Assembly (NCBI RefSeq): GCF_947623445.1
Contig: NC_135244.1
Coordinates: 9,858,001-9,922,000, forward strand
DNA from: Clavelina lepadiformis
Lineage: Eukaryota; Chordata; Ascidiacea; Aplousobranchia; Clavelinidae
DNA: 64,000 bases
Direction: 5' to 3'
How positions within the stretch are numbered: position 1 is the stretch's first letter; each line of letters opens with the position of its first letter. The notes below the pieces were generated by a model. That model did not search any database. It saw only the letters and a program-made list of their open reading frames with translations, and had not been told where the DNA came from. Shown here piece after piece: positions 10,390 through 51,509 of this stretch. The position numbers and the translations under genes are program-made.

Positions 10390-11934
10390 TCACAAACGAT
10401 CCATGTTATATCCGTCAGAGTGAGATGTTCGTGGAGAGAAAACCTCATATGAAGAGGCTGATCTCATCTTCCTGAATCTAGTAAGCAAACCTTATGTGTT
10501 TAATACACTCAAACATTTGGTAACAGCGAAATATAATCACAAAAAAAGGTTTAGGTTACTATGTTATAAAGATGTGCCGAACCAGAGCCCAAGCCCAAAC
10601 GTTACCTTTTTTTAATGCTCTCACAAACCCCAACTTTACTTTTAGTTTTACCCGAACGTTTGCTTTTTGTCCAAAAAAAAACAAACAGCAATAATTTTTC
10701 GAACATTTGCTATACCGGGAATAGTTTTTGTAATCTTGCTGTCCCCGCCATTAACTTCATAAAATTAGTGCATAACACGTCACGCATATAGGCGGTGTCA
10801 CTGAAATTTTTTGTTCTTTTTCATTAAAAACGTAAACACAAATAAGTTATATATACAAAAAAGTTTATGTTCATAAAAAATCTCTTTGTGAAATAGTTTC
10901 TGTCGTTACAGTAATATTAACGTTAGGTTAACATTCAGAAACTGTGAAAAATAGCTTCGAACATACGATTGTCTCCGGTGAATTAGTGGCAGTCATTAAT
11001 CAAGATTTCAAAGTTTTAATAAGGGATGATTTTTTACTTTTCTGTAGAATTTTCGCAGTATGATGAAATAATTTCCTTGCAGTTAAAACTTAGTTTTATG
11101 CATATTGCTCGTCATATTTAACATTTTTGAATAACATGTAGCAAGCATGTAGCTCTGACGTTTCTATTTGTTATAAGCTTGCAGACTACACATATCCTAC
11201 ATTTTATGCTCCCAAACCATAAAGCATTTCGTCGTTTTTAACATTACATGAGCCCAAAAAGTTTAGAACCACTGGTCGTTAAGTTGTTGTAATTTAACAA
11301 AAATATTTTTAGATATGAAATATTTTGATGGTCCACCAAAGTTTAAAAGTTGGTGTTGCGGTGCATTATTTAAAAAAAACTGGGAACCACTGGTCTTAAA
11401 CTTTATTGCTACACTCACGTTATAATAACGGCTGCGGAAGCTACCGCAACAACCACAGCAGCAGACACAGCAATACCGACAATGGCGCCCGTGCTGAGTC
11501 CAACAGTGGATTTGGGACGAACGTCGATTCGCGCTTGAGCTAAAAAGTTTAATTTACGTTAAATTTTTAGAGCTTACGTTTTATTGAAAGTTTGATTTTG
11601 AAAATAAGTTATAAGACTATATAAATTAGTGTGTCTTGTTTACCGGTTGCAGCTGTGCTTGTCATGCCCGTTGCAGCTGCTGTGCTGTGCTGTGACGACG
11701 TTACTACGTATCGTGTTGCCACAGGACTTGTATCATAGGCAGTTGTAAAGTCAGGTTTGGATGTCTCCATTGACGCAACAGACGATGGAAACGATGAAGA
11801 AGAAATAGTAGACCCGACAAAAGGTTGTATAGTGGGAGCCGATGATGATACAGCGGTACTGAAGAAAACATTGTGGTCAGTAGAGACCCTCCGGGTTCTT
11901 TGAGGTGTGGTTAAAGTGGCAGTCGTTATGCGGT
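10390..11934 (-). CDS. Receptor exons 32-34: Ser/Thr stalk, membrane span, tyrosine tail
   Basis: Exon 32 (11644-11934) encodes 97 residues rich in Ser, Thr and Ala, a likely O-glycosylated stalk. Exon 33 (11419-11539) has ARIDVRPKST followed by a small-residue membrane span (GAIVGIAVSAAVVVAV...). Its donor leaves phase 2, and the exon at 10390-10477 enters with the matching phase after a CTTACTAG acceptor. The tail starts TFRKM and contains SSYEVF and GYNMDRL before TGA. The start T-[FLI]-R-[KN] matches both tail exons of the plus-strand paralog, which supports choosing this distant exon. Intron 33 (10478-11418) holds hAT-like ends. Another tail exon may exist and be unrecognised. Confidence 0.78.
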
Positions 11935-14900
11935 CTAAAAAATAAATTACAATGACTATAAACAATATACAATGTAAGCTAGGAGAAAAAATAGCTATAA
12001 CTAAAATATCTTTATGAACGCGATGAAAATGAACGTTCCGGTGACTAGCACTTGTATACAAGGCCTTATGTTGTGTGGCAGTTGGATAGCAGTAGCTTCA
12101 TAAAGTTGTATGGAAATGGAGCATGATACTGTGGAATTACTATAGACAGCGAAAAGTTCATTTCGACATACATATACTGTATATATATGTTTGCGCATCG
12201 GTGCGTTGAAAGTTGAGGCTAAAGGAATTAAACCAGATAAAATCATAAAAATGAAAGAATAGTAATCTACCTGAAACGCAAGTTATTCCAAAAAGATTTG
12301 TGTGTTTCCATATGCCGCTGCTTCCGCAATAGTTCACAAATGTTCTATTTGTAATACTTCCGAACTGCACAAACTGATTCGACAAGCATGATATAGAATA
12401 TACAATATTTCCAGTTGAGCACGAAAGAGCAGTTTGTGTCAATCCTGCGCCTCCTGGCAGAAGCGGTCTTGATCCGCACACACTTACTTTAAAAACGGAT
12501 ATGCTATGATTATTTTGGCAGATCGTACATATAGTAAATATAGTATATATATATAAAGAGAATTCAATTGCTATCTTCGATCAAATTCACATTAGATTGC
12601 TAAAAACACAGAAAATAATTAAAAACGATACAAAATCTTTATACCAACTGCACTCACAGACGATGTTAATTGTAAAGGAACACTGAGTTGTACGGCCGTC
12701 TTCATCAGTAGCTGAGTAAGTGATAACGTGTTTACCTAGAGCAAGCGTAGCCGGAGAAGTGATATTAGGTGTTGTGATGTTCAGGGTCTCTGCATCTGAA
12801 AAAAAAGGATCGTCATCGTCAGGACCTTCTCGATCGACGCAGTGAGCGCACTTCATTGAAAAAAAGTATTAAACGCACAAAGTCTTTTATGAGGTAACAC
12901 GTGATATTCTATTATTTTTATAATTATTATTGCTCTATATAATTATTAGTTAATATATAGTTACTCAGAGTAACGGTTTTGGACTAGGAAATCTTTTGAA
13001 ACTGACTTACCGGTCCTGTCATCCGTCCAAATAGGAGGCTTCCAGCTTGCGTTAGCCATAAGTGGGCAAGAAGTAATCTTTAATTTTATGTCGGCTGGAC
13101 AAGTGTGTCCGTATGAAGGTGGTCGGTTTGCTGTGTTTTATGAAGAAGCAAAAATTTTATCTCCATAATCATTTCAAAAGATACAAAAACGGAAGTTGAT
13201 AAAAATCACCGCGTTTTTCGCATTCATTTTGTCTGCGTGTAAAGCCATTTTGACAATCGCAATCCCAGAAAAAACTTGATGTTGCCAGACATAATTGTGC
13301 ACACGAGTTGGCTTGACAAGGGTTCCGTAGCCCACCTTTTAAAAACGGCTTTATAAATATATAGACTATACGCAATGATAAAAAGGCAATATGTCCTGCT
13401 TTGAGAAATTAATTAGAATTGAAAATATGAAAACCTTTAATTAACTCCATATAGCATAAACTTAAAATGGTTTTTTTTCCTTACCTAAAGTTTCTCTATA
13501 ATAAGAAGTACTAAAAACCGACATCGACGTAATGTGACCTAGTATCTGGCTATTCGGACCAAAATTTGAAAGAACTAGGTTTGAAACTCGTTTGAGTGAA
13601 CCATCGTATAAAAAGAATGCACGGTCCCTATCGGCCGTAAACCTGTTATTTATTGGAACAAGCGGATTAGTCTGAATAAATTTGGCATGGGTTCAATGGT
13701 GATACGGACTATACCGGCATCACATCTTTATCAGAAACAGTTGAATGACATTATTTAACTTAAAAGAAACTGTACATATTCATACAAGAATGTTTTTTAG
13801 TTAAACTTTTTTTAATTTTCTTGCGTTTTAATCATAAGTTGCATGTATTGTTACAATGTTTTACTATATAAGCGTAACACCGGAATACTTGCTGCCTTTG
13901 CCGGACTGCATAAAGCTTAGGGTGCTTACTGAGATATAGTTCCAACATTTAGCTGTCCTTCATAATTTAAGGTAAAATCAGCCGGAGCAGATAGATTTGT
14001 AAGAGTATATCCAAAAATAGAACCATTTCCAACAATCGAATATAGAGAAGAAACTGTGTAAGGTACAACAACGAGAAATTTTTGTAAAGTTCGTATTCAC
14101 TGCAGGGCTTATTATTATGTTTGAAAGCAACACCTCATGAATATGTTAGAAATGTTTTGTATTGATTTCACCAAATTTCTTTACTGACCGGTCGAAATTG
14201 TGAATAATCCAAAAGACTTCCTCGTTTTTTTTTCACCAGACCCGTCAAAAGCAATATAAACGAGTGTTTTTCTACCACTTTGATCTTGTTCAAGAAAAAC
14301 CACTAACCTGCAAATAAAATTGAAACAAACGTATAGTAAAGAAAACAACGAGCACATTTTAATCATTAAATTAAAGATACTTACAATCTTTATAATAGTT
14401 TCTTAGTTATTCTATACATTGTACAATGTACATGATGCAAAAGCTTTAAGCTAAAACTCAGCTTACTTTTGTCTAATATCTAAGTCTATTTTTAGAATTG
14501 AAGATTGATTTCGTGTTTTGTAAATGGTCTTTAAAAAAAGACCTTCGCTATTCACAACGTAAATAACATCTTTTGCAGCATGGTTTGTTGCAAGCAAGTA
14601 AAGGTAACCAGTTTGCGGATCCACCTGTATATCCTTCACTGTAAACAACAAATTCATATTTTGGCTATTTTAATCCGAACGGTAGTGCAGTATATTGTAG
14701 CAATAAGATTTTGGTTACATTGCGTAAAAGTTGTGGTTTGAATTTACCTTTAATTCCGTCAAGAATTTTGCTCGAATTTAAACCATCAACGTTTGCCTTA
14801 AATACTTGAGAATTTGCAAAGTCAGACCAGTAAATGAAGCCATTGGCCGTGTTGGGTGCAGCTGCGCGGACACTAGCGTTTGAAGCTAAATATACAAATA

Positions 14901-17900
14901 GTACGTTGCAGTTTGAAGAAAAGCGATTCACAGAAGACAAGAAAGGTTGCTTACCAAAAACCTTTATTAACTTTTGTTTATAAGATAGGTTTTATATATC
15001 CCTTACGTGTAGGTAGAATAGAGAAGTGAGAGGCATTGCTGGCTAGCAAAGGAATCTTGAAGATTTTTTCGCCACCAACCACCAACAAGAAGTCATCAAA
15101 CACTTCATACTGAGTATCTTTATAAAGGCGTCATTATATGGTGACGTCATAATTGTATGCGCAAAGGCTTCTTACAGTCTTTGCATTAAAATGCAATAGG
15201 CTCATTAATGTAATTGTTTCCTACTGTAAGACAAACAAATGATACATGCAGCTATGTTTTCGGTAATATTCACTTGAAAATTTACCGTTCATTATGGCAA
15301 TGCTTTCCGCGGTACACTCAATACCAAATAGGTTAGAATATGTCCATCCGCTTTCCGTACATCTGTTAATAAGACTTTGTCCGGAAACGTTACCAAAGGT
15401 AACTAAGCGATTTTTCGGACAAGTTATTGCGTACCGCAGCTCATTTTGGAAACAGTTTGACTGTGCCTGTATAATGTTACTTGCAAAAGGGGTTTGAGGT
15501 TGAGCTCCGCAGCCTTTTGCTGAATAGATTTTAAAACAAATTAATTTGGAAAAGAATGAACTTTACCTAAAAGTCAACTTTTAAAAACGTGAATTTTGAT
15601 AAAAAGCTTTACTTGAAACGGTGACTAAAATATTGCATCGTCCTGTATTTCCCGCGCTGTCTGTTGCTGTGTACATTAACTTGTGAACTCCGACTTTGAA
15701 GATCGCTGGTGAGGTGATGTTTGGCGACACAACTACAAGGTCAGCCGGATCTACATTAACGTATCGTGATTTAATTTTCCGTTATAGTCTGAACAAGATC
15801 ACGATTAACACTCAATATTTGATATTATTTTTACACCATTAACTGCCTGTCGGCTGTAATAAAGTATGTTTGAATATCGTAACAATATAGATCTACACTA
15901 TAGTAACTTATTGCGCTAACAGCCTCTTAAGTGCAAAGCCTTATCATTCAAATGTAAACCATATGATTTATAGCTATATTTTGGGCATTTCAGCAGCACT
16001 AATTAAACGCACTTGTATGATCATCGTTCCAAACAGGAGATGTCCAAGTAACGCTGGTAGTATTTTGACAAGTGGGTATTTCAACAGAAAAATCTGGTTG
16101 ACATGTCCTGCCAGCAGTGGGAGCAATATCATCTATATATAATCAAAACGTTTGAGCGAGAGTAAAACTCATATGAGCATGCACAACTTATAGTAGTGTA
16201 GTTACTAAGTAATCCAAAGTAACACTGTTTGACATGCTCGTTATACTATTGTAGTTGCTGTTGCAATACAGATCAAAACGAAGCAATAGGGAAGACATTG
16301 GTCGACAGCAAAACCAGTTGTTCGAACAATAGATTGCCATTTGTGTTGTCTTATAGTTAGCGGAAATAATATCCAAATTCTTTTTGTATATTTTGTCAAA
16401 CACTATCACCTGTCACAACACAAAATATTAGCCTATACCTGGGCGTCTTTTGGTACAATTACCGTCCTTTTCGTGATACCCATCACCACAATCACAATCA
16501 CGGGTTGTACTTGATGTTGCAAGACATAAGTGAGAACAAGACGGACGTGTGTTTTTACAAGGATTTGTAAGGTTTACTTCAACAAGTGAAAATAAAAAGA
16601 TATTAAAATTTTTAAAGTATATGCAATTTGCTATAATTTTCTCAGGAAAATGAATTAAAATTTATGTTTTAAAAACCGATAAAATCTAGCAATTGTGTTA
16701 CCAAGGAATTGTCTGTTGTGGTAGTAACTGTAGGGTTTGATGGACGTGACATTTCCTAGTAAAGGAATATTGTCAAATGTTCGGATAGTGCTGCCATTCG
16801 TGGAAGAAACCTTAAGGAATCCATCGTAAAAGTACAACGCGTTGTTAAAAGCCTGCATCCTGCAAAAAGTCGTCGCAAAAAATGTTTACAAAGACAACAG
16901 TGGTTATTTTAGGTGGAAATGGTAATTTTGTGTCTTCCTTGTGAAATGATCGAACATTCTCATGAAGTAATGGCACGACTCAACCCAACTGCAACTTCAT
17001 TTTACGATTTGACTTTAATGAATTGTGCATTAGAACGAACTAACCTGGTTGAGGATGTAATAATAACTGGAAACGACGACTGTGATATTAGCGACCCAGT
17101 TTCATTAAATGTGCTAAGTCGCCACACTTGAAGCTCCGTATCGGATGGAAACACCAGTAACTTATCACCTTTCAGTAAAACAATGATAACTTTCTTAAGG
17201 TGTAGCCTATTTGATTTGTGATTACGCAATAAAGTTGATTAACTTCTCACCACTTTGATCTATTGTGAATGTGATTGCTGTGCCAAACAACTGTGACTGT
17301 GATCCATCAAAACGCATTCTACCCAATTTTGATCCATTGTTGTTAACGGTTACATAATATAAAAATCTGCAACAAAATTTTATGTCTTAGGTAGCTTTAC
17401 GTATACAGTAGAATTCGCCTATATCGACACCTCAAGGGAGTGAAGAAAAAATGTTGATATAGGCGAAGTGTCGATGTAGAGTTGTAGACGAATCGATATA
17501 AATTGTTCCTAAATTCCGGTTTTCGTTCCATGTAAGGGCCTGGTGAGGGTAAAATGTGTACTCTAATCAGCACTGCCGCTTAATTTTATGCTTTCGCGTA
17601 CACTACGGCAAAGAGCAACACAAACAAGATCGTGAAAAATAATTAATGGTAGTTGTATTTACACGTAATACGCACGCAGACGGTACTGATGCGGAGCAGT
17701 ATGGCGTTACTTCAGTAAGGTACAGTGCAGTATTTACTTCCTTGCAAAAAATCGCTAATTTTTTCTGTTTTGTTTTTTGCGACAGCTTTGTTCAACACAT
17801 GTTGCTGAATTTTTGTTAGCGAATGAAAGACTTCTTGGTTGTCGTCGCTGCTTCTAAGGTAGCGATCAAATTTCCTGATTGTTGCCAACATGCTATTGCG

Positions 17901-20900
17901 TCTAAAATGACGATTTGTGGACACTGTTTAAGTCGTAATAAGTCATAGTGACATCATAATTACGTCAAATACGACTAGGCAACCTAAACCGTCATACGAT
18001 AACGTCATAAAGTCGTAAGTGGGACTACGTCCCGGAGTGAAAAGAAGAGCTATACAACTGTCAGTATAAACGAACAAAATGTTCTGGGGGATCAAAAAGG
18101 TGTGGATAAAGCCGAAGTCGATATAGGCGAATTCTATTGTACTATGAAAAACCACAAGTATGACGTAGTCGATGAAGAAAAAGTTATTATTATAGTTTAC
18201 TATAGTTTATAAGTCTAAGCAGAGTGTATTTAAACTAGTTTACAGCAAACTGTCAAACCGGAACTAAACCTAAACCTTTTAACCGGATTGTGCTGAATGA
18301 TTTTGAGAAATTAAATGGGAATTATAGAATTCAATATATGGGTCCATTAAGTTTTTCTGAACTAAAACCGAATTTGCATCAGCAATAAAACCAAAGAAGA
18401 AAAAACTCGAATCGAAGTCGAACTTTTCTTGGCAGCGACAACTTCATAACAGCTATTGAAAACGTGTTTCTGATTGTTGTATTACTAAGCTAACGTAGTG
18501 CCATAATAAGAAATTAAAAACAGCAACGGTTACCTTTAATTGCAAAAATAAAATTAACAAATATTTAAACAAACAATTTATTAATCAAAAATATTTTTTG
18601 GGAAAAGAAATGTCTGGAGATGGAAGAAACAAGCAGGAATGTACCACATATCATAACTTTACATCCAAGTTTGAAAAAACAAGGTCAACTTTCAAGGTCA
18701 AAAATGCAATAGTGAATGAAGAAAATTGGAAAAGATCGGAAGGCTATGATAATAAAGCAATACTGAGTCGGCGAGAGAAACATACTGAAAAATTATAGAG
18801 GTAGACAACCAACTGACCGACCGCAGGAGGGAGTTGAGTATGCAAAGCCACAACTTGATACTCTGTAAAAATTGACATGAGCCATCAAACAATTATTTAT
18901 CTGTCAAAAAAACATCAGGACTTGATGAAATACCAACAGGATTATTCTAAGACCTGTCCCGGTTCCTGCATTAGCAGCTTTATGTCATAGCATATATGGA
19001 AATTACAAAAGTGGCCAAAAGACTGAAAGAGATTGATTTATATATCAATTCACGAAAAGGTGAAACTTTACTATGCTCAAATTATCGAGCCAAACTCCTT
19101 TGTACGACAAATAATCAAAATTATTTTAAAAATCATTCAAAAACGCCCTGGTACAGTCATCGACAAGAAAATGCCAAATGATCAGACTGGAGGTTTCGGA
19201 AAAGGAGGAGGTGTCATCGTGACCACATTGCAAACGTGATATGATATGCAAACCGGTTTTTGATGTTATCCAACACAAGAGACTCAGGAAATCTTAGGAT
19301 TACATGGGAACACCAATGCGGTCGTGAGATCTCAAGAGATCATTATTTCACGACCAGAAAGCCACAGCCCAGAAACGTAAGGATATATACAACATACAAG
19401 GTTCAAAATGAGAAAAGAAATACTTCAAGGATGCATCCTATCACCCTCAGCATTTAAAGAGTATTTGCAAAGCAGTCATGCGAAATCCGGTTTAAACGAT
19501 ACTGGCATTGTGGTAAAACTAGATGGCAAAAACATCAATAAACGAAGATACGCGGACGATTCAACTTTATTGGCCGAAATTGCACATAATCTTATAGGTG
19601 TTTAATCATGAGCATGAAAGAGGAAAGCGACTGAACTGGGCTACACCTCAACAAACGGAAAGCAAAATTTTTAATACTTAAAAAGCGGAGAACATCAAAA
19701 TAAAGATTAAAAATGAAGAAATTAACATGGTGAAAGAATCCATATTCCTACAGAGTTCAAAATACGTTATGACACCATCAGCAGCTTACCATAGAGACTA
19801 AAAGAACAGCACTGGGCAAGAATGACCTTGACTTGACTTCTTCTTGTTTGTATATAAGCCGGTCAGGATTAATGCCCGCGAAGATAGGAGGATTGTCTGA
19901 TTGAGGAGGAATGGTGAGGGACGCATACATCCAGTCACAGTATAGACTAACGCGGTTTACGATGGTGTCAATTTGATGAGCGTGTGTACTGCGACACTAG
20001 ATAGATGTGCAGTACTCAGCGGAAAAGCGGACTGTAGGGTTGGAGCAGCTGTATGAAGAGTTCACGTTTTGCTTCCTTGTTGTTAAGATGAAAATATGCC
20101 AACACAGTTTTGATTTTGCTGAGCTTTAATTTCCATTTCTGGAGGTAAGGCTATATATAAGATAGTCATAACTTGGCAAAGAGTCCCCTCCACTGTTTCC
20201 CATTTCCTTGCCGAAAGTTCAGTCGCCAGTTCGTCCGCGTAGGCGTACTTGTTAACGACATCGTGTTCGGTAGGTCATATATGTGTAAATGTCATGTTAA
20301 AGAGGAGGTAGGCCCGGACCGATCTTTGATGGGACGCCGTTCTTAAGCCGTCACAGCCTGTTTCGTTGTCCGCGACCCTTAGTGAGAGTAAAGCTCCGGT
20401 TACAGGCAAGATCCATGATTACCCGGACCATATGCCTGTTTAGGACCAGATGGAGCAGCTTGCAAGCATGGCCGCAGTGTATCGTATCGGGCCTAGGCTG
20501 CTGTAGGGTCTAAAAGAACAACGCCGACCTTTTCTTTAGATATATGTATGATACACTTCCACTGACAATTTTCTCCTACAAGCAATTGGCTATTATAAAT
20601 GCCATACCAACAGTAAACTAAAGTTAAGACATTCTGTAAGCAACGCGGGAAGATGAAGAAATATTTTGTCATTTTCAAATGGTCACACCCAAGTTAGGAC
20701 TGAGCAGAATATGTATAACCTTGCCTATAGGAGATATCACGATGGTTCTAAAGAACAACCTGTAAGGCTGTTACCGGAATGAAACTTCCGCTCTTGAAGC
20801 ACTTAACAAATTAGTAAGAAAAAGAAATTAAAGATCTGTTGGCCTTAACTTCATATATAGCAAATTTGAAAGAAATATTGTGTCGTATATGAGACATACA

Positions 20901-23900
20901 GTACCTTACTAGAGTTAAACCATTTTTAAACGCGGTTCGACAGCTTGGTTTATGGGACTAAAATTGATTGAGAGATAATGTAAATGGTAACTAAAGTTTC
21001 GTTGTGCTTATATGTATGATAGTCAATCATAACAACATAGAAACATACTTTTGCCGAAGGTCCAACTCTATCTTCAATATAATCTCTCCTTGGTTTACCT
21101 TGAAAAGCGTTTTCCAATACAAGCCATCTTTGTTTACTGCGTAAATTCTGTCCCTTTCACGCAGATTTGCAGTCACATACACGTTTCCAGTTAAGTCATC
21201 CACCTCTATTTGTCGAACTGAGATTAATGAGAAAGTTGTTAAATACAATTTAACAAATTGGGTGCACTCAAGGTATGTGAAAAACGAACTTCTTAATCGC
21301 GGGTCTGAAATCTGGACAATCCAATTTAAGATAAATTTTGCTTACTGCTTAATCCATAGATAAGAGGAGTATTTTTTGTTTCGCCAAGAAACGTTTTCCA
21401 GAAAGTGGAGTTTGCGAGATCGGACCAGTAAAGTGCAGAAGTTGCCATGTTGACAGCAGCAGAAAAAGCCGAAGAATTGCTGGCTAAAAATATTGAAAGT
21501 AAATCAAGATGATCATTAACAACAGTTAACCAATAAATCAACAGAACGATATCAGACATACGATGATAAATAGTTCTAAATTACTAACGTAAATGCTGGA
21601 TGGTGGTTGAAGCTGAGGAACCACCTACAGACAATGGAATCTTTAGTATTCTTGCATTGCTCACAACTATGAGGAGGTTATCGGTCAAGTTTTGAGGATC
21701 TAGTAAATGTACAGTATGTTGCATAACTATAGGTGATATATACTGCTCATAAATGTGGTGAGCCATTGGTTATAGTGCAAAATACACAAGCAAATGCTAA
21801 GCTTACGTAAAAGTAACTATATATTGTATAGCATAAAAAAAAAACACTATCGAACACTACCAAATTACATCTTTGGATAAATTATTGTAACCGGAAGTCT
21901 ATGTTATGTAACTTTTCTTACTGTCGTCTGGTATACATTCCAAGCCATAAAGGTTTACGTATTTCCATAATCCCTGTTTTGTGCAAGTATTTGTGAAAGT
22001 TTTATTGGTCAGATTACCAAATTTCACTTCAAATAACGGTGGGCAATTGATCGTGTACCATCGATGCGTGTTTGAGCATTGTGTGGAAGATTGCGTGAAG
22101 TCGAAATTTGTTGGAAGTAAAGGTCTCGAGCCGCAGCCAATGTTTTCTTTGTAGACAAAAACGGATAAGTTTTAATTATCTCCAAACGGATTTTTGGAAA
22201 ACTAAATAACTTATGAATAATAACCTGTTTGACATTTGTACCTCTCTGCATTCACAGATATTGTTGAGAACGGCATTAAGTACTGAGTTTTACTTACCTT
22301 CAACACTTATGGTAAAGGTGCATATTCCGGTTTTTCCTTCGCTGTCGGTTGCGGTGTAGTTCAATGTATAGCTACTGATATTAAGAAAAACTGGGGACGT
22401 AAAATTTGGTGAAGTCAGAATGAGATTGCTGGCATCTATTGATAGTCAAAAAGTATTAATTCTAAGAGATTGCAAGGTATATTTTGGATTAAGTTTTGGG
22501 GTAACTTATGTTGCAGGGGTCAAAATATTATGGAAACAGATATATGTAATCATGACGTACATCGTTTTATAATCTATATGGAAACTAACTTGTTCGATCA
22601 TCAATCCATTGTGGAACGGTCCAATTCACACTTGCACCTTCACAAGTTTGAGCAGGAATTCGCATATTTCTAGGACATGTGGGTCCCGCTGACGGTGGAG
22701 AATCTAAAAAATATACTTTGCAATTCTTTTGATTTATTTTTTCAAATTATATTTACATTTCAGTTTATGTAGAATTTTTTATTTCTTTTCGGTATAGTAG
22801 CTGTCTAGAAGGTACCTACGTGAAGTTGGATAACGGTAGGCCTACCCTGTTGGTTGCTTATTCAGGTACTTAATCAAAAAATGAATTTGATTACCAGTTT
22901 TATGTGGTTTCTTGTTTTGTTAGTTGTAAGCAAATGAAGTCGGTTACATGTTATTTTGTTGCTTATTCATTTATACTAATTCGAAGATTAAGTTATTTAC
23001 CGATAGTAAATAAGTAATCAAATAAATAATCCGGAAATTACATGCATGGCAACCAACTTCACGCCAGTCTAGTAAAGTCATGATTTGTTTTGGACAATAA
23101 TTTTTCCTGATCCGGTATTTCAGATTAACCTACACTTCGGTTATTTTGAAAAGAAACTTATTCTCAGTAAAGTCTTACTTGTAATTAGGTGGCTTGTTGT
23201 TTCACATCTTCTTCCATGAAAACCATTCTGACAATCACAATCATAAGTTATTTCCGATGTAGGAATACACAACTGAGCACAGTTTGTTAATCTACATGGA
23301 TTTCGAGCTGAACCTCCTGCAAATATTTCGATAAACATAAAAATTTAAAAAACATTTTGAGATAACACTGTTTGAAAATCTGTTTGTACAACGTTTTCGA
23401 TCCATAACAATCTTCTTTACACTTAAACTCAAAGAAAACAGAGCAGAAATACGCACGTATATGGAAATTTTCTGTAACACAGAAAGACATGCAGTCAAAA
23501 GTAAACAAACTTACCAACAAACCGTTGATAATGCGAAATGCTGAAAAACGATAAGGATGTTACCACTCCGCTGAGAACAGCAAGAGAATGATGAAATGGG
23601 CGAAAAGTGTTGTCAGACTCAAATGTCGCCACTTGAAAGTCATTTAGCCAATATACAGAACCGTTGAATGCCTTAAACCTTGTTTATAAATTGAAACATA
23701 GTAAAATATAGCAATGTGTGAAGCAGGAATTGAGTTCTATTGCATTAACGAGCAACGTAAGCAGCAGTTATAAGCTCTCATGATGATAGCAGCAAACCTG
23801 AAATCTCCTGTAGCATTGGAAGGGGTACATATGAATTTTCCGGAATTGTTTGTAGAAATATTTTTCTTACTCAAAGGTTGTTGCAAAATATAATTAGCTC

Positions 23901-30271: not shown

Positions 30272-30293
30272 GAGAGAGAGAGAGAGAGAGAGA
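30272..30293 (+). repeat. (GA)n microsatellite
   Basis: About eleven uninterrupted GA units. Confidence 0.95.
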
Positions 30294-41400: not shown

Positions 41401-42905
41401 TCTTGTGCTGGTCAAATCCTTTTCTGCAAACCAAGTCAGCTCTTTGAGTTAACAGGGTAATTAATTTTAACTCGGTTAAGCACACACCAAGAAACAAATT
41501 GTGCGATGTCATGTAAGAAAATCGTGTTTCTGTTGCCAAGAAATTTGGATGGAAACTTATTTCAGCGAACACTTCTGTTTGATCTATCTTTTTCTGTCTA
41601 TCAAAATGTGTTTAGCATAAAATTAGCGCAAGCCTTGTTAAAATGTTTTTCGGAATCGAAGTTTTAAATATTATTCAGTAGATCACGCAACTACAACCGA
41701 AACTTGTATTATTGGAATCAAAAAATAATATGCATATAATCGTAAAACGTTTTTGCAATCGAATCAGTAAAATGCAGTATCTTGCTGAGTAAAAAAAGAA
41801 ACTTAATACAAGAGATAAAATGCTTATCCGTCTTTGTGATTTGTTTTCTATATGCGACAGCAACTCACTTCAGAGAAAATATCTTGCCGATGGCGATATT
41901 ACATTTTTTCCTCGCGTATTTCAACCGAAGTAGTACATAGAGAAGGTCATAATGTTCAGTGATAGCAGTCTAGGCATCGACACCTGCAGGTTTCAATTGT
42001 CTGTGGCGTTTCAAATAACAAAAGATAAAAATCAATGGAAAGGAGATGATGGTATGAAGTATTACATATAGCATTAATAAAACTTTGTTGCAATGGAAAG
42101 CTGAAGGGAATAAACTCTAGCTTAGACAAATTTAAAAAGCTGAGAAAAGGTTGTAAAAACAATTAAAAATATTTAAATAATGATTAGACAAATGTAACTT
42201 AAAATTAGTACTTATAAAAGTTATTAGTAATTAGTATTAGTAAAGTTAGTACTAAAAAGTTAGTAACTTAAAATCTTTGTGAAAATAATATAAAGAAAAT
42301 GAGTGAACTAACATCGTCTAAATATAACTAGAAATGCCTTTAAGACATATTGTTAATTATTTATTTGCAAGACTGATTAATTATAAGCCTACATAATTGA
42401 CTATAGCTTATAGACTCTATTTAATACAATTAGCAAATTGAAGCAAAACATCTTTTTCACCTTGCAATTTTTTGACGACTGCACATATTCTAACATTGTG
42501 CAAGAACAACGGTCGTTTGTTCATTGGCAACTTTACGCAACTTATAGGTTAATAGCGCAAGCGTAAAGCGCAAAGCGCCATCAAAAGAGTCTGTAATGGC
42601 GAAAGTAAATAATTTTGAAAGAATTAATCGATTCTCTTTCATATCCAAGATGTCACATGGCCACTTTTTCACGTTTCGATTTTGTAAAATGTTTTGCAAA
42701 TCTTCAGCATTTCTAAATGCAAGGATGAAAATGTATTGTGGAATAGAATCAATAGCCTACGCTGCTGAGGTCAACATCTGAATTGGTTAATAACTAACAA
42801 AGACCTAACGGAATTAATGCATTTTCTACTTTTACGTACAGAAATTTGCATATAGAATTTTCTTTGAATAGTATTGTTGCAACTGTGGAAAGTAATTCTC
42901 TAAAA

Positions 42906-45900
42906 ATGAAAAAGCAACGCTTTCAAAAGAAGTTGCTTTTGCTGCAAATCTTCCTATTTGTTTCTAAGCAGGTCATATTTGGACAAAGCGTTACTTCAAC
43001 AATACCCGTGCCAGGTAACTAAATCTTAAGAATGTGCGGCGCTTTGTTTCTTACTCTGAATACCCTTAGGCCTGTAAAATTTCTCAAAAAAGTTTTCTCG
43101 AAGCATTAGAACACATGTTAATTATAAGCTATATTGCTTATATATTTATGTATATATATATATTGTATATACTAGTATATATATACCGTACAGTTTATAC
43201 ACTTAGCCCGACGTTTTATAATTTGATGATAATAAAATAGGTATCAAAACTTTGTATCTTGTTTGTATTAAATTAAAATAGCTATCATTAAAGCGTATAT
43301 TGCCTTTAAGATAACGCAGTAAGTTGATCGATCAAAGATAACTCACAAAATGAAATTTAGTCCAATTTAAAAACTGTTCTGATGTAGAGTGTATCGATGG
43401 TGCAAGCACATGGTATAACGGCACACACAGCTATACTGAAAGTGGTATTCTTTGTCAAAGATGGGATGTGACAAAGCCACACAAACCCAATCACATTCCG
43501 GCTGACGGTGGAAAACACAATTACTGCCGGTAAAAATTGAATGAAACTGTTTAAGGCATCTGTTTATAATACTGCAAAAAGACTTGGTCTTATATACTTG
43601 TGGGTATAATGCATATATGGAATATTCTGGGGTGGATCCCTATTGAAAAAAAAACATGGTAGCTGTTGTATAGATATACCAAACTTTATGCATTTCATTT
43701 TAGTTATTGGATGTTAATAATATTCAATATTTAAAGCAATGATTATGTAGTTTATATTTATAATTTCGAAACAGAAATCCCGACGGTGATTTGAGTGGAA
43801 CATGGTGCTATACAACAAATCAGACCAAGCGATGGGAATATTGCTACATTCCTAAATGCAGTCAGTATGAGATATGTATAAGTAATGGTTAAAGTAGGTC
43901 TTGATAAAGTTTATGTATAAAATAGTTGTTTTTTGATCTTGGATATTTTTTGTGGCGTTTAGGTGATGATTCCTTGGTAGTTTGGACAAACTATGACGCA
44001 ACAAGCGAAAGCTCCCATATATTATCAGTTCATGCCGATCCTGAAATTGTTAAAAACCAGACTGGTCAGACAGGCCATTTCAATGTGTCCATCTTGGTAA
44101 AGTCTAATGACTCTGTCGCAGAATTTTGGTCAGTCACTGGAAATTACCACAGAAACGTCCTTTTTTACACCGACTACAGGTATCACTAGCATTTCAAAAG
44201 TATCTTACCACAATGGACCCTTTCCGAGTTACCGCGTTACATTTTATCATGTGAAGGATTTCATATGCAAATCACCTGAACGAAATTTTTAAAATCCAAT
44301 GGGTAGAACGTTTGTAATTTAAAAAAGAATCAAAGTGGGTCAACATTTTCAAGTTGTTAAGTGTTAAGTATAAGCGATCGAAAAAACCTTGCCACACAGG
44401 CAGTATTTCGGAAAGGGTCTATTGTAAGCTATAACGTTAACTATAGAGAAAATTTTCAGTAGGAAGTCACAGTTACTTGCTGCATGAAATCGAAGAGTGC
44501 TTTCTGCTAAAATCTATAATTTGCACATGGGGCGTTGTTTATTGTTAATGACTGCGTTTTTACCATCTAGATCGGAGTATATTGGAGTGCGCCATCTCAA
44601 GCATGATCTGACATTAAAAATGTACGAGGGTATGGCACATGGAATCGAAAGTATGGCATATGATTGGATGACCAGAAACCTTTACTGGACAGACTCAGAA
44701 TTCAAATGGGTCATGGCTTCGGAAAATTCATTTCGTTATTACACTCCAGTATATCGTACCGATGATCCACCATATGCCTTGGCCATTCATGCAAAACATA
44801 GGTAATTTATGTATAGTTTTGTTTTAAAGATAAAAAAAATAAAGCGAAATCAAAAATAGGCTGCACTTTGGGTTGAAATAAAACATAAATGGTGGTTTTA
44901 TTATTTGTAACCTGCGTTTCAGGCAACTATACTTCTCTACCTACAAAGCTCTAAAATCGAAAATCATTGTAACGGACATGGCTGGTAAAAATGAAACGGT
45001 TTTGTTCCAGTTTCCAGATGTCTTTGATGTCACTGGACTCACTATCGATTACACAGACGAAAGGTTTGTCTAAATCTTTGGTTCTTAACTTTTTGCTGTC
45101 CCCAAAGCTAATGTGGACTTATTCGCCTTTTTACTTATGGCTAAGGTTAAAAAATTAAGCTACAAACAATTTTTCACAACTTACTACATTACGACAGTAC
45201 AAAAAAAGACAACACTGAAACTTTATTTGTCCAATGAAGCCTAGTTAACGTTGTACGGCGAAGCACTGATGATAATAAAAGATGTGAAGTTTATTATTAA
45301 AATGTCTCTGGGGTCCTATAAAAAAAGTACACAAATTTTTGGTTGAAAAAGGTTGATCTAGAGTTCTAGACTTTAGGTTCTAAAACAATTTAAGGGCTCT
45401 TACTTTGTGACGCACCAAAACGATTTGTTCTACATACTATCGAGTGCCAAATGTAATCCAAGCATGATTGTTTGCAAAATATTTTCAATAAAAGACTGCA
45501 GTCACAGTTAGTGATTGCGCGTTTATACTGTAATTGCTAGGCTGCTCCAGCAATATAGCTAATTGAAGGGAAACTGAAAATGTTGGAAATAGGATGCACA
45601 CCGGAATTATGTTACATTCCAAGAAGTGTCGTAGAAAGATAGACAAAACAACGGCATATATAGTGACTCCCCCCACTAATTTCCTAAATATGATCTAAAA
45701 GCTCTAAAGCATATGTGTACTCAAATTACTCCTGAAATGTTGGGTTGGGATGAAAGCAAAATTATTTTAAGAAGATGTTTTTAACGTATTATAAGGTTTC
45801 ATTGGCAATGTCTGTGTCGTATACCAACAAACAAGATTTCATTAATGTTTTGTAGATTATACTGGACTGATTTTACTGGTTACGGAGGAATGGTAGTCAG

Positions 45901-48900
45901 CAGCAAACTGGACGGAACAAACAAAACGCAACATCACTATAGGGGTGGCTCTATTTTTTGGGGCGTCGCAGCGTATTTGGTAAACATTTGTTAATTTATT
46001 CATCCTCATGCTTTATCACAACAGCTCACATAACTTTGCCGTGTAACAATTAAAAATACCGTTAAAGAAAAACTATACATACCGTATCTGTATTTATAAC
46101 AGGACTACTTATATGTGACTGACGTTCATGCACGATACAGTCCGAATTCACAAAAGTACTATTCGGTTTGGATTATTACCAAGAAAACTAAGAAAACCTT
46201 TAGGTATACCCTTAATGGTAAACCAAGAGGAATTGCAGTTCTTAGTAAAAACGAAGAAAGAGATCCATTAGTTAATGGTGAGGTTTATCTGCACAGACAC
46301 ATTTGCAAAGTATAGCTTCGATTGGATAGCTTTAAATTAAGAAATTTAATTCGTTTAGATCCAAAGCACGGACGTTGCAATGATCCCGGAGTACCGAAAT
46401 GTGCTCATATTTGTCTTCCTCGTATTAATGCAACAAGAGAATGTGCTTGTTCACTAGGTTATCATAAGGTTGATGAAACTAAATGTCAATCAAGTAAGTA
46501 AAAATTTTTTTAAAGTTTGCGATCTTTTCATAGAAACCATACGTACTACGAATTGTCAATTATTTTTGCAGGTATCATTAATGATGAATTCATCCTTATT
46601 GCTGATTCGGGTCAAGGAAAAATTTTCCAATTACCAATTGGCAATGCGATAAACACCACCTCCAATTATTCCATCTATCCAGCTCCAAGTGAGTCATACA
46701 TTTAACCACGTGACCAACACGATAGCCTTTACCATGTTTTAACGGTTACGTAGTTTTTATCAAAAAAGCACAAACACAGCTTTAGTCTAAAAAACCTTTT
46801 TGCTTTTTTATGTAGAAATAAATGTACAAGTTTAAATTTCATTTACAGCTGGCACGTCTCGGGTTGCCACCGTTGCCGCCGACACGAATAGCAACTTCGT
46901 TTTCTGGTCAGATAAACAGTACGGTTCTATTAAAAAAGCTTTACTGGATGGTACCCGTAAGAAGACGTTGAGTTCAGCGAGTCACTGTACGTTGATGCAT
47001 TATATGCTATGGCGGCTAGTTGCAATTTTTTGATAATGACACACTATATGATAACGTTGTCATTTGAAAATTACAGCGGAAAGTCTTGTCGTTGATCCCA
47101 TATCTGGCAATGTGTTTTTCATGAATAGTGAATCAGAGTCGATTTCAGTTATGTCCTATGATGGACAAGCTTACAAGACTCTAATGACGAGCGAATCAAT
47201 AAACGCAAGCATAAAGATGGTTACACAAGACAGTGTTAACAGGTATAGTTGTCATTTAGCTGTGAAAGAACATTGGAGAAAATTATTGGAATTCTGAAGC
47301 GATTACTTAAATTACAGTACCTTATGTATACACCCAATCTGGACTTTTTCCACATTAAAAATGCATATTACTATATTTTAGGAAAATATATTGGACTGAC
47401 ACAAACAATACGGAAGGTCAGGGACAAGTCTGGAGAATGAATTTAGACGGAACCAAGAAAGAAGTTGTTTTGTCTGGTCTTAACTGGCCTCACGCTATAA
47501 CTATTAACCATGAGAGTAAGCTCATATACCATGGCATTAATAAAATAATAACTTAATGCTTGACCAACTTTTTTCATCTTTTTTCGACTTCATTAGGAAA
47601 GAAACTTTATGTGGCTGAAGCAAAAACTGCAATGATCTATGAGGTCGATCTTGATTCAATTAAAACTATAATATCAACGTCACCACAAGACATCAAAAAA
47701 CAATTTGATTTAGCCGGTCACATTACCAGGCTTGAAGTCTACATTAAAGAGTAAGTTCAACAGTTGTAAATCAACGATTCTCGAAATGGTATCTCAACTA
47801 ACCAAGAGATTAAACAATCAAGTAATTCTATACTAAGTAAACTAGAAGTGATTTTCTGTCGCAACAAGTTTAATTCATTTACTTGGTTATGCACAAATAG
47901 AATTGTGGTATTTGTGTCACAAAAGAAGTGAAATAGAAGCAAGCTTGTACTTACCGAGATCTGTCATTATTAACTGTAATGCACCATACTGTTTGCAGCA
48001 TAAAAGTCCATAGAAACAACCTCTATTTGATTGACGACAAGACATTTAGGGTAGAAAAATTTAGTCTGGAGACTGGTCCCAGTTCATTGACTTCATTCGG
48101 CCCATCCGAATTCTTCGCCTTGTCATCAATGACCCTTGTCAGCAAAGAGTATTATAAATCATATATAGGTTAGTCACTTTTTTGTACATTGAAGTGCCTT
48201 TTTAATAATATGGCGTTTCATCAACACTTTTTGTTGCTTACAGCCACCATTCCTTCTCCTTGCAAGCGACGTTCGACCAAGTGCCATGAACTATGCGTAG
48301 ACATCAGCGATACCGAGTCTAAGTGTATATGTGGCGATGGAAAACGCCTCTTAAGCACTGCTTGTGTAAATGATGGACTTGGAGCTAGTAAGAAGTTTTG
48401 CAGCCAAGATTTGTAATCTTTAATATAGTTTAAAACTATTGATTTCATGTCAAAGAAATGCCCTACAAAATAATGAGAAATACTCAAATTAAGATAACTC
48501 TTATTAAACCAAAATTCAACTGCAACTTTCTTGCGCAATTTTCAGACAAACCTCCCAGTACAAATTACACTTGTCCGGACAACGTCAATTTAGATTTGCC
48601 TCAATGTGAAAGTTTTACTTTCACAAATGGAACTTGGTCCGAGCCTACATGGATAGATGATAGTACTCCGGGTAAGCTTATCAGTAAAACATCAAGCGAG
48701 CTATTTGCTTATATAACGAGTTAACGACTAAGATAGACGGTTTATTTGCAAAAAGGTTCTGATTGCTAAAGTAATCATTTTATTGTTAAAGTTGACAGTT
48801 TGTTCTTGAGACGTCCATCGATACCAGTTTCCCTTGGGGCCGGAAGACATTCGTATATATTCAGTGCAACAGATGCCCAGGGGTTAACTGGTTACTGCAG

Positions 48901-51509
48901 TTTCACAATAACTGTCAAATGTATGTAAAAATGTTGTAGATACTATAAAATTGCATTTAGTAGCTAACTTGCTTCTACGTTTTTGTGTATTATTTAATTT
49001 AATTATTGTAATGTGCAGTTAAAAGCATATTTATAGCAAGATACGATACTGCAGGCTGTATGGTTTACCAAAAGTTTACTTTTTAGCAAATGAATGTAAC
49101 GAACCACCTCAGCTTCCTGCAAGCATGGTTGCCGGAAAACGAGTTTGCGATAATCGATTTGGATCATCGTACAGCATAAGCTGCAAGGATGGCAGATCCA
49201 TTAAGTTTGTCGGTGCAAATCCACCAGTACAAACTATTTATAACCAGACGACAGTTGTTAACTATTGTGGACGGATTGGATGGCTAATCACTGATGCAAG
49301 TGTTCTGGTTTGCGAGGCTCGTAAGTAGTCTATATAGACTAGAGTACCCATGCAAAAGAAAACTTAAGACTAAGGTTTCGTAAAAAACTTATCAGGGTAT
49401 TTTTACTACCGTATTTACGTGATTGTAAGGAGCCCTCGATTGTAAGACGCATGTAATGCTGCTAAAATTTGTATAATTAAGCCGCGCATAAACATACGGT
49501 ACAGTAAGCGAAAAAACGAGAAAGAAAGTTTTATTGATAAAATGTAGCCAACAAAAAATGCCTTATAAAACTCATAAAAAATGTATATTTTCTGCATAAA
49601 AAATGTATAAACTGCCCTCGAATGTAAGCCGCAAAAATCATGATAAAAATCTGCTACGGCTTACAATCGAATAAGTAAACGGAAGTTGATAAATTTTTTG
49701 ATTGAATCAATATTAAAGCTATAACAATACTTTTTTCTTTTATGGGTTAATCGCTTCCCTAAAAGGCAAATTGCTTGAAATATCGTTGGTAATGTAGACG
49801 ATTACATAGCCATACTTAACTCAATTTAAGTCGTGGGAGTCTTTGAAAACAAGAAGAGATATAAAGCTTTACAGTTCCAAAATATCTTTTTGTTAGATTT
49901 TCACCATTTTATAGCTGCGTTTTTACACATTCTGTGCACTAACCCTATGAAATGTTTGTACACAAACTATTTTATTTTTGTGTAGTGCCTACGCCCCTAA
50001 GTACAATATCAACCACATCGAAATCAACGTCACAAAGTACGACTTCGTCTACCACTTCTAAAGCCACACCTTCACCTGCGACACCTAAAACAACTTTTAC
50101 AACATCAAAAGCAAAAACTTCTAAAACAACTACAACGCCATCAACAGAACAGAAAATAACTTCAAAAACATCAAAGCCCGAAACACCAAAAAAACCTAGT
50201 AAGTTCAACCAAATCTTTCCCCAATTTTGTTCAGAACAATGGAAACATCGAACGTTTCAGTTTGGTATAGCATATGCAAAAAGTTTTTTTGGTAAACTTT
50301 TAGGCAATAACTGCAAAGCACATGTTGAGTAAAAACAAATGGTCTGCTTATGCGTTACAAAATGCAAAAATGTGCACTCTGATATAAACTAATATTCCCG
50401 CAAAAATGGTCGCAGCACCGCCACATTGCGTTTACATTTCATCTTAACTTTATAAATGTATAAAATGATAAGAACAAAAGTATTTCAAGTCAATCTAGCA
50501 CTTATGATGTCTTGTTTTTTTACAGCGCTCGGGACTCCACCCAAAACTGCTATGGCCCCTACAGCCACTACTACTGCCGCTAGCGCTACGGTTAATGGCT
50601 CGGGGAATGTACAATTGACTGGTAAACAATCATCCAGTGGAGGTATGGGCTCCGGTGCCTTGGCAGCAATTATAGTCCTCGTGGTTCTGTTGGTCATCAT
50701 CGTCGCTGTAGTCGTGGTAGTCACGTAAGTAGTTTTAGTGTTATTTAGCTCGTTGTTGGACTTAATTTTACAAGATACTTCAATGCAATCTACTATCTTA
50801 AACTTGGTTTCTTAATGAGACCGGTGATGATAAGCATACTTTTAAACACAGGCTACGAAAGCGCGGCACACCTTGGTTAACAAGCATCAATTTTCCTTAT
50901 GTATGGAGAGCGAGTGATGATACCGATAATATTTACGAAAATGATTCCAACAGAGTCAATAATCATTATAGCGTCATGTGATGCTATTGCTTAAACAAGC
51001 AATAGGATACAGTACTTTTAGTAAGCCGCATCGCACATTGTTTAGAAGACAGGCCCACGAAATCTTATTTGAGTTAAAACTTCGCTGTTTGCTGTATACG
51101 CTTGCTTTTTCGGATTTTGAAAACAATTTTAATACTTTTTCGGTTCAGCATTTGCTTCAAGGCTGAAAAAAGTATGTTAGCCCAAGTTGCTGTTTACTAA
51201 TTTAGTATTGGTCCAAACTTGAATTGATTTTGGAGTGAATGAAAAGATTTGTGAATTAAAATCCACTTTTCTCAGCTAAAACTCTTTATTTACTTTACCT
51301 AGCCTTCTAACACCAAACCACCCTGAGCTTCTCGCTTTTATTTTCTCAGTAACTTTATCGTATAAAATAACTCTTCTTTTATTCACTCCAGAATCCGAAA
51401 TCGACCTGTTTGGAAAGTGGCAAGGTTTCCAGTTTTCTGGAAAAGAAAGGCAGAAGACGCAGTTGACATGAATGCAACGTCAGACTCCCCTTACTCTATG
51501 ATCACGTAA
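42906..51509 (+). CDS. Kringle - LRP propeller - EGF - propeller - EGF - HYR - sushi-like transmembrane receptor (22 exons)
   Basis: Exons: 42906-43014, 43388-43529, 43775-43860, 43963-44179, 44571-44801, 44923-45063, 45856-45979, 46103-46277, 46359-46493, 46572-46688, 46849-46980, 47077-47242, 47382-47515, 47597-47750, 47999-48168, 48244-48387, 48546-48671, 48792-48920, 49087-49320, 49986-50198, 50526-50724, then 50852-50981 or 51392-51509. The total is 3408 or 3396 nt (1135 or 1131 aa), all phases consistent. Order: signal peptide ([14 protein letters not shown], 1-36), kringle (37-112), LRP-type propeller (113-408, YWTD in LYWTDSEF and LYWTDFTG), EGF (409-453), the ten-exon module shared with the minus-strand gene (454-955), Ser/Thr/Lys stalk (956-1026), membrane span (about 1066-1091) and a tail. 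A single-pass surface receptor is inferred; ligand unknown. Confidence 0.92.
43138..43188. repeat. (TA)-rich microsatellite, receptor intron 1
   Basis: Mostly TATATA units with interruptions. Confidence 0.85.
43388..43860 (+). CDS. Kringle domain, exons 2-3 of the plus-strand receptor
   Basis: Two exons with phases 1-2-1, the usual kringle gene layout. Motifs in order: [47 protein letters not shown] and [10 protein letters not shown]. Six Cys, the CQ-W pair, NYCRNPDGD and WCYTT are the diagnostic kringle features. Kringles usually bind proteins or lysine residues; the ligand here is unknown. Confidence 0.95.
43963..46493 (+). CDS. LRP-type YWTD propeller and EGF (exons 4-9)
   Basis: Five exons with phases 2-2-2-0-1, unlike the module pattern, carry [45 protein letters not shown] and KPRGIAVLS. 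These are canonical LDLR/LRP propeller signatures, more so than in the downstream module. Exon 9 is an EGF domain: [29 protein letters not shown]. The different phase pattern implies this propeller has a separate origin from the module propeller. Confidence 0.9.
45075..45360. repeat. Probable decayed hAT-like copy, receptor intron 6
   Basis: The left part starts near TTTGGTTCTTAACTTTTTGC followed by TGTCCCC. The right part, read inverted, has CAACCTTTTTCAACC followed by GGACCCCAGAGAC. The pattern of a C/T-rich end and an inner CCCC block is typical of hAT ends, but the inverted match is imperfect and no target duplication was seen. Confidence 0.4.
46572..49320 (+). CDS. Fourth copy of the ten-exon receptor module (exons 10-19)
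   Basis: Phases 1-1-2-1-2-1-1-1-1-1 equal those of the three modules in the minus-strand gene; length 502 aa. Marks: [59 protein letters not shown]. The EGF-like exon starts [10 protein letters not shown] and contains HELCVD, KCICGDG. HYR: YTCPDN, extra [28 protein letters not shown]. Sushi-like: [32 protein letters not shown]. Confidence 0.9.
49408..49684. mobile_element. MITE in receptor intron 19
   Basis: The left end ACCGTATTTACGTGATTGTAAG and, read inverted, the right end CCGTTTACTTATTCGATTG plus TAAGCC are imperfect inverted repeats. Inner blocks CCCTCGATTGTAAG and CCCTCGAATGTAAGCCGC repeat the same motif. No coding content. The family was not identified. Confidence 0.7.
49986..50724 (+). 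CDS. Stalk and membrane-span exons (20-21)
   Basis: Exon 20 is a Thr/Ser/Lys/Pro-rich stalk of low complexity, likely O-glycosylated. Exon 21 continues with [13 protein letters not shown] and an Ala/Ile/Val membrane span beginning [20 protein letters not shown]. Its donor leaves phase 2 after the codons for VVVT, the same phase and residue as the minus-strand paralog. Confidence 0.9.
50852..50981 (+). CDS. Alternative last exon a: tail ending YSVM
   Basis: Acceptor AACACAG, entry phase 2, 43 codons including TGA. The tail begins TLRKRGTPW, has [10 protein letters not shown] and IYEND, and ends NHYSVM, a C-terminal YxxM. It lies 127 bp after the membrane-span exon. Confidence 0.85.
51392..51509 (+). 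CDS. Alternative last exon b: tail ending YSMIT
   Basis: Strong polypyrimidine tract and acceptor CACTCCAG, entry phase 2, 39 codons including TAA. The tail begins TIRNRPVW, has [12 protein letters not shown] and ends SPYSMIT. Alignable with exon a (T-[LI]-R-[KN]-R, W, FP-x2-W, then an acidic stretch and YS), so the two are probably a tandem exon duplication used as mutually exclusive last exons. An AATAAA at 52295-52300 may be its polyadenylation signal. Confidence 0.82.

What the first reader, a model, noticed from the sequence alone, without database searches (positions are those of the whole stretch)
10390..51509. Divergent pair of undescribed-looking multidomain surface receptors
Two large transmembrane genes point away from each other across 13.6 kb. 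Both end in the same block: propeller, EGF, HYR, five-Cys sushi-like, Ser/Thr stalk, membrane span and tyrosine tail. I know of no named family with this order: LRPs have propellers and EGFs but not HYR plus sushi, and HYR/sushi proteins lack these propellers. All exon sums are in frame, so both genes look intact. A pair with variable module number and tails suggests a lineage-specific recognition or adhesion family.
Basis: partly seen in the sequence, partly recalled or inferred. Interest (0 to 1): 0.88.

Follow-up and report, generated by a model that had tools for sequence, protein, structure and literature searches.

The report
Tunicate kringle–propeller receptor gene pair
Two neighbouring sea-squirt genes encode large, intact cell-surface receptors of a family that I found by name only in tunicates; one joins a plasminogen-like kringle to the ligand-binding propellers of cholesterol-receptor relatives, and I found no description of what they do.

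Summary
My exon models match, letter for letter, predicted NCBI proteins of Clavelina lepadiformis: minus gene 1643 aa ('uncharacterized'), plus gene 1137 aa ('LRP2-like'). The minus gene lacks it; it has three tandem 10-exon propeller–EGF–HYR–sushi modules. All four modules share exon phases.

It is a family. Kringle–propeller relatives occur in Ciona, Styela, Phallusia and Oikopleura; no named non-tunicate protein listed had both domains. The Clavelina genome holds at least seven more loci, six in one cluster. The minus gene is single-copy; no orthologue was found.

Propellers are LRP-type, but LDLa repeats and NPxY tails are absent. Two other Clavelina loci (unconfirmed models) carry propeller–EGF–HYR–sushi–TM without kringle, so the terminal block is wider than this pair.

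Likeliest function, inferred: an endocytic/scavenger-type receptor, from kept kringle lysine-site residues and a C-terminal YxxΦ motif. New variant of a known kind; function untested.

The parts
10390..29282 (-). Minus gene M (LOC143460769), 34 exons, 1643 aa: signal peptide + 3 tandem propeller-EGF-HYR-sushi modules + stalk + TM + tail
   Evidence: exon model identical to P0121; single copy: 34 of 39 matches in the window, 5 weak ones in the C5 cluster
29183..29282 (-). M exon 1, hydrophobic N-terminus (signal peptide by eye)
21922..28324 (-). M module 1: propeller exons 28226-28324, 27840-27977 (GC donor), 24375-24543, 24146-24270, 23798-23951, 23515-23678; EGF 23179-23316; HYR 22590-22703 + 22298-22435; sushi-like 21922-22146
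15286..21699 (-). M module 2: propeller 21589-21699 to 16702-16859; EGF 16439-16576; HYR 16013-16132 + 15613-15750; sushi-like 15286-15519
   Evidence: LRP6 propeller-EGF match E 9e-10
12271..15117 (-). M module 3: propeller 15007-15117 to 13485-13642; EGF 13210-13335; HYR 13011-13130 + 12658-12795; sushi-like 12271-12486
11644..11934 (-). M Ser/Thr-rich stalk exon
11419..11539 (-). M transmembrane exon
10390..10477 (-). M cytoplasmic tail exon, FRKMRSASSYEVFSPRTSHSDGYNMDRL, with one internal YxxPhi (YEVF)
42906..51509 (+). Plus gene P ('LRP2-like'), kringle-propeller-EGF-propeller-EGF-HYR-sushi-stalk-TM-tail
   Evidence: exon model to 50983 identical to P0001
42906..43014 (+). P signal-peptide exon (by eye)
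43388..43860 (+). P kringle, two exons 43388-43529 and 43775-43860, six Cys, lysine-site residues kept
   Evidence: Pfam Kringle E 1e-18; best PDB match plasminogen
43963..46277 (+). P YWTD beta-propeller A (5 exons)
   Evidence: PDB LRP6/LRP4 matches; AlphaFold block pLDDT mostly 80-94
46359..46493 (+). P EGF A
46572..48168 (+). P YWTD beta-propeller B, first six exons of the module
48244..48387 (+). P EGF B
48546..48920 (+). P HYR domain (two exons), 3 Cys
   Evidence: by alignment with M HYRs; Pfam HYR in 5 of 10 family members, not in P itself
49087..49320 (+). P five-Cys sushi/CCP-like domain
49986..50198 (+). P Thr/Ser-rich stalk
50526..50724 (+). P stalk end + transmembrane helix
50852..50983 (+). 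P tail exon 1, ends ...NNHYSVM* at its own stop
51392..51509 (+). P alternative tail exon 2 (predicted), ends ...SPYSMIT*
   Evidence: no transcript seen

Best explanation
The two genes belong to a tunicate family of type I receptors built on the LRP/LDLR-type YWTD propeller-EGF unit, with a HYR-CCP pair next to the membrane and, in the typical member (plus gene), a kringle at the tip. SHOWN by sequence: domain order, intact frames, shared exon phases, family relationships, conserved kringle lysine-site residues, a recurring tail ending. INFERRED: the kringle and propellers bind soluble or matrix ligands, the kringle probably through lysine; the HYR-CCP unit (8 Cys instead of the usual 6, so perhaps one inter-domain disulfide) acts as a rigid spacer above a mucin-like stalk; the C-terminal Y-x-x-hydrophobic motif recruits clathrin adaptor AP-2, so that bound ligand is endocytosed. 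Two alternative tail exons in the plus gene would tune trafficking or signalling. The minus gene is a derivative that lost the kringle and propeller A and triplicated the remaining module.
Against: No expression, binding or trafficking data. YxxPhi is short and occurs by chance; 4 of the 13 C-termini lack it (P0006, P0124, P0125, and P0127, a partial record), and in M it is internal. The tail split is not clean: the Ciona tail also scores 71 with Styela and 54 with tail 2. DxD is broken in Clavelina paralogues P0002 and P0006. The Cys pattern is not universal: the two appendicularian-type rows have 13 and 9, and the predicted CCP of cluster gene C lacks two of the five Cys (not in the 17-row alignment). 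LDLR-type NPxY and LDLa repeats, hallmarks of endocytic LRPs, are absent. M has no kringle, so lysine binding through a kringle cannot be its function.
Confidence: 0.5

Rival explanations
1. Recognition family: the receptors discriminate self/non-self or microbes, with gene number and module number as the source of diversity.
For: Eight family loci of the plus-gene type in Clavelina counting the window (one, F, without a kringle found), six of them clustered at C5:7.21-7.52 Mb, plus the triplicated M; cluster genes match P0001 at only about 23-71% identity exon by exon; CCP/HYR modules suit recognition.
Against: The plus gene has relatives at 51-53% identity in Ciona, Styela and Phallusia, which is slow for a recognition locus; no polymorphism data; no link to the known tunicate recognition genes was seen in the papers searched.
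Confidence: 0.2
2. Signalling co-receptor: a tunicate counterpart of LRP5/6 or LRP4 for Wnt- or agrin-type ligands.
For: Best sequence and fold matches include LRP6 E1E2 and LRP4 double propeller-EGF units.
Against: Two propeller-EGF units instead of four, no LDLa, no PPPSPxS motif in the tails read; the tree separates the family from LRP4/6-like proteins at 100/100 (3 outgroup rows).
Confidence: 0.15
3. Adhesion or extracellular-matrix/tunic anchoring receptor without endocytosis; the mucin-like stalk holds the head away from the cell and the kringle grips matrix lysines.
For: Ser/Thr stalks in both genes; HYR-CCP pairs occur in matrix proteins (recalled: SRPX, SVEP1).
Against: The recurring tail motif suggests intracellular partners.
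Confidence: 0.15

Closest known systems
LRP5/LRP6 and LRP4 (LDL-receptor-related proteins)
   Same: consecutive YWTD propeller-EGF units, type I membrane protein; among the best fold and sequence matches
   Different: no LDLa repeats, no NPxY or PPPSPxS; adds kringle, HYR, CCP and a mucin-like stalk
Plasminogen/HGF/ROR kringle proteins
   Same: kringle with all six Cys, aligned with plasminogen K1 including its lysine-site residues (site recalled)
   Different: no protease, no kinase, a single kringle at the tip of an LRP-like ectodomain
SRPX/SRPX2 and SVEP1 (HYR next to sushi; recalled)
   Same: HYR and CCP domains side by side
   Different: those are secreted or matrix proteins without YWTD propellers; here an extra Cys in each of HYR and CCP
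Kremen (kringle-WSC-CUB, LRP6 partner; recalled)
   Same: single kringle at the tip of a type I receptor
   Different: no WSC or CUB; propellers in the same chain
Unnamed Clavelina loci C3:5.976-5.983 Mb and C4:23.647-23.656 Mb
   Same: LRP propellers-EGF-HYR-sushi-TM
   Different: no kringle; C4 adds an Ephrin_rec_like domain and has more propellers

Membership tests
LDLR/LRP family | YWTD propeller followed by EGF | tested here: met
LDLR/LRP family | LDLa (complement-type) ligand-binding repeats | tested here: not met
   no PF00057 at E<=0.1 in either protein, nor in 10 family members at E<=0.01
LDLR/LRP family | NPxY in the cytoplasmic tail | tested here: not met
   read by eye in the tails of P0001, tail 2, P0121 and the family proteins with a TM
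LRP5/6 | four propeller-EGF units, three LDLa, PPPSPxS motifs | tested here: not met
   two units (plus gene) or three (minus gene), none of the others
Kringle proteins | kringle signature with six Cys | tested here: met
   Pfam E 1e-18; plus gene only
Lysine-binding kringles | binding of lysine or its analogues | not testable with these tools
   lysine-site residues kept in sequence, binding not measured
Sushi/CCP | CCP sequence profile | tested here: inconclusive
   profile hits C1r CCP at 2.9e-6; Pfam Sushi not reached by members; extra fifth Cys
HYR | Pfam HYR above cut-off | tested here: met
   minus gene 73 bits vs cut-off 21.7; plus gene itself not listed, 5 of 10 family members at E<=0.01
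Kremen | WSC and CUB domains after the kringle | tested here: not met
   neither listed by Pfam at E<=0.1

The most novel reading that the evidence does not exclude
A pan-tunicate receptor class arose in the tunicate stem by shuffling a lysine-binding kringle and a HYR-CCP unit onto an LRP ectodomain; in colonial Clavelina it has become a clustered, diverging multigene family with module amplification that serves colony-level self/non-self or microbe recognition.
Probability: 0.15. Interest if true: 0.85.

Novelty: new variant of a known kind. Interest (0 to 1): 0.55.

Why it matters
It gives a defined, testable receptor family whose named members are all from tunicates, the sister group of vertebrates, with one relatively conserved member (51-53% identity between Clavelina and Ciona, Styela, Phallusia) and a diverging cluster in a colonial species. 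It also shows a kringle that keeps the plasminogen lysine-site residues fused to LRP-type propellers, a combination that no named non-tunicate record in these searches had. The automatic names 'LRP2-like', 'LRP6-like' and 'vitellogenin receptor-like' hide this and could mislead studies of Wnt or yolk uptake in ascidians.

Tried and rejected
Chance or fused-gene artefact: rejected because the models equal independent NCBI predictions and the 10-exon phase pattern repeats four times. Splitting the minus gene into three genes: rejected because module-to-module junctions are in frame and NCBI has one protein; its RNA support was not seen. LRP5/6 orthology: rejected on domain content and tree. Extra family remnants elsewhere in the window: none; 173 of 173 tblastn pieces from nine family proteins fall on modelled exons.

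Published description: ten full-text searches (open-licence library only; one search asked for the Clavelina genome) listed none. PMC9643190 (passages and section 13 read) names a tunicate protein, E4WTL6, as best kringle match for prothrombin and defines Ldl_recept_b in its Fig. 4 legend; that may be a family member, but I could not check it. PMC6337849, PMC9265791 and PMC4523013 were seen only as passages; PMC10884593 (Clavelina genome) only in the search listing.

Limits. Orthologues of the minus gene: none found (1 protein at E<=0.001, itself, of 7990 scored candidates), but the search needs shared 5-residue words, so fast-evolving orthologues could be missed. Absence outside tunicates has the same limit; one search showed 120 of 653 hits and scored only the 7992 candidates sharing most words, and seven kringle-bearing proteins have no species name. 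Rows near the combination: P0034 (Antedon, LRP2-like) lists propeller, sushi, Ig and trypsin domains, and P0113 (unnamed) lists HYR with propellers, both without kringle. The fold search covers mainly residues 45-876 of the model; HYR-CCP was not searched alone. Cluster genes C, D, E and loci C3 and C4 rest on my own exon predictions, which contain evident spurious, misframed or missing exons; F, G, A and the C9 copy correspond to P0122, P0006, P0126 and P0002. The database proteins of A and C9 end before HYR, so they may be truncated, mispredicted or pseudogenes; I did not decide.

Full report
WHAT IS THERE. The window is C5:9858001-9922000 of a 209 Mb genome. Both genes match Clavelina lepadiformis proteins at 100%, on a contig of the same length as C5, and the published genome of that species is 210.1 Mb (PMC10884593, seen in the listing). 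I built exon chains with a small splice/codon model and curated them. After moving one donor of the minus gene and reading tail exon 1 of the plus gene to its own stop, both in the light of the records, the minus-strand chain equals P0121 (1643 of 1643 residues) and the plus-strand chain equals P0001 (1137 of 1137). These are database predictions; I did not see their RNA evidence.

ANATOMY. The minus gene has 34 exons: a signal-peptide exon, three modules of ten exons each, a stalk exon, a TM exon and a tail exon. Entry phases of the ten exons are 1,1,1,2,1,2,1,1,1,1 in each module, and the plus gene's second half has the same pattern. Within the module six exons make a propeller, one an EGF, two a HYR, one the sushi-like domain. 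The plus gene has in front of its single module a signal peptide, a kringle on two exons, a second propeller on five exons, and an EGF.

DOMAIN IDENTITY. Pfam gives Kringle (1e-18) and Ldl_recept_b (4.3e-10) in the plus gene and HYR (2.6e-20) in the minus gene; Ldl_recept_b is below its cut-off in the minus gene and HYR is not listed in the plus gene. Propellers match LRP2, LRP4 and LRP6 (plus gene) and LRP6 (minus gene). The AlphaFold model of P0001 (10 sequences, mean pLDDT 72.5, pTM 0.62) has propellers mostly above 80 and a stalk and tail under 50; its best matches are LRP4, LRP6 double propeller-EGF units and megalin. The five-Cys domain is a divergent CCP: profile match to C1r CCP modules at 2.9e-6, although Pfam Sushi is not reached. 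In all 12 non-appendicularian module rows and the three M modules counted, the last 215 residues hold 14 Cys; the two appendicularian-type rows hold 13 and 9. By eye 6 belong to EGF, 3 to HYR and 5 to CCP. Canonical HYR plus CCP would have 2 + 4 (recalled), so the extra pair may join the two domains; this is inference. The predicted CCP of cluster gene C lacks two of the five.

THE FAMILY. A profile search returned 69 proteins at E<=1e-10. Sixteen of these carry Kringle in their precomputed domains; nine are named and all nine are tunicates (Clavelina 4, Phallusia 2, Ciona intestinalis, Styela clava and Oikopleura dioica 1 each); seven come from unnamed assemblies. P0008, P0122 and P0129 belong by sequence but have no precomputed kringle. 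The other 50 are LRP4, LRP6, vitellogenin-receptor, nidogen and other propeller proteins, some unnamed. In a tree of 17 family rows and 3 LRP-like rows the family is separated at 100/100; Oikopleura with two unnamed rows forms one group (100/100) and the other 14 rows another (99/98) (the root is for drawing only). This is consistent with an origin in the tunicate stem; unnamed rows cannot be assigned to species.

THE GENOME. Besides the window, family loci lie at C9:11.462-11.468 Mb and in a cluster at C5:7.21-7.52 Mb: A 7.207-7.216, C 7.444-7.452, D 7.453-7.461, E 7.465-7.473, F 7.477-7.486 (no kringle found) and G 7.507-7.517 Mb, plus two isolated kringles at 7.223-7.224 Mb. That is seven further loci. 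C, D, E, F and G show HYR and CCP exons and many of the same exon lengths and phases. For A and C9 my models and the database proteins show nothing of HYR or CCP after the second EGF. The minus gene is single-copy: 34 of 39 matches of P0121 lie in the window, and the other 5 are weak hits to the cluster at C5:7.454-7.468 Mb. Its three modules form a clade (100/99) that groups with cluster gene E (92/93, not starred).

A WIDER BLOCK. HYR and Ldl_recept_b hits coincide at two further places. My models there read propellers-EGF-HYR-sushi-stalk-TM at C3:5.976-5.983 Mb (Pfam: Ldl_recept_b 6.4e-42, HYR 1.3e-10, Sushi 0.003, the last just under its cut-off) and propellers-EGFs-HYR-sushi-Ephrin_rec_like-TM at C4:23.647-23.656 Mb (Sushi 0.008, also under cut-off). 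So the terminal block is older or wider than this pair; the kringle marks the family of the plus gene. Whether such kringle-less receptors exist outside tunicates was not searched.

HOW IT MAY WORK. The kringle aligns with plasminogen K1; the residues recalled as the lysine site (DxD, Trp, aromatic, Arg-Trp) are kept: DxD in 14 of 16 kringles covering it, the exceptions being Clavelina paralogues P0002 and P0006. Tails end in Y-x-x-hydrophobic in 9 of 13 C-termini with a TM. The plus gene has two tail exons in the same phase; one resembles the Ciona tail best, the other the Styela and Phallusia tails, with some cross-similarity. The second is predicted from splice sites and this conservation, not from a transcript that I saw. 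The simplest reading is an endocytic receptor for ligands with exposed lysines, with tail variants. Binding and uptake are untested. Recognition, co-receptor and adhesion readings remain open.

LITERATURE. Ten full-text searches listed no description. One coagulation paper names a tunicate protein, E4WTL6, as best kringle match for prothrombin and defines Ldl_recept_b in a figure legend (PMC9643190); whether it belongs to this family is unchecked.

VERDICT. Real, intact, and under-described. The parts are known; the combination and its apparent restriction to tunicates are new as far as these searches reach.

Noticed in passing
window 62323-63846 (+): Single long ORF with FLYWCH zinc finger and MULE transposase domains: a DNA transposon.
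   Followed up: no
window 59925-60377 (-): Open frame with the N-terminal part of a rhodopsin-type GPCR, 7tm_1 E 6e-14.
   Followed up: no
window 9000-9791 (-): 264-aa open frame just downstream of the minus gene; no Pfam hit; by recall it resembles hAT/ZBED transposase-derived proteins.
   Followed up: no
window 61994-62147 and 53234-53492: Tandem repeats of period 15/46 and 102.
   Followed up: no
L029-L030 (C3:5.976-5.983 Mb): Kringle-less receptor with LRP propellers, EGF, HYR, sushi and TM, predicted here.
   Followed up: partly
L031-L033 (C4:23.631-23.656 Mb): LRP propellers-HYR-sushi-Ephrin_rec_like-TM receptor with a second, partial copy of its 3' half about 16 kb away.
   Followed up: partly
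L035 6130-7348 (C5:7.223-7.224 Mb, -): Two adjacent kringles of the family type without propeller hits in the 10 kb read.
   Followed up: no
L045 (C5:7.792 Mb, +): Two HYR hits; fetched, but no tblastn match to either window protein at E<=1e-3.
   Followed up: no
L040 (C5:7.4824-7.4834 Mb): Sequence that looks like a mariner-type transposase by recall, lying between exons of cluster gene F.
   Followed up: no
C8:19166005-19168791: Five kringles in a row in one 1802-aa open frame, unlike the split kringle of this family.
   Followed up: no
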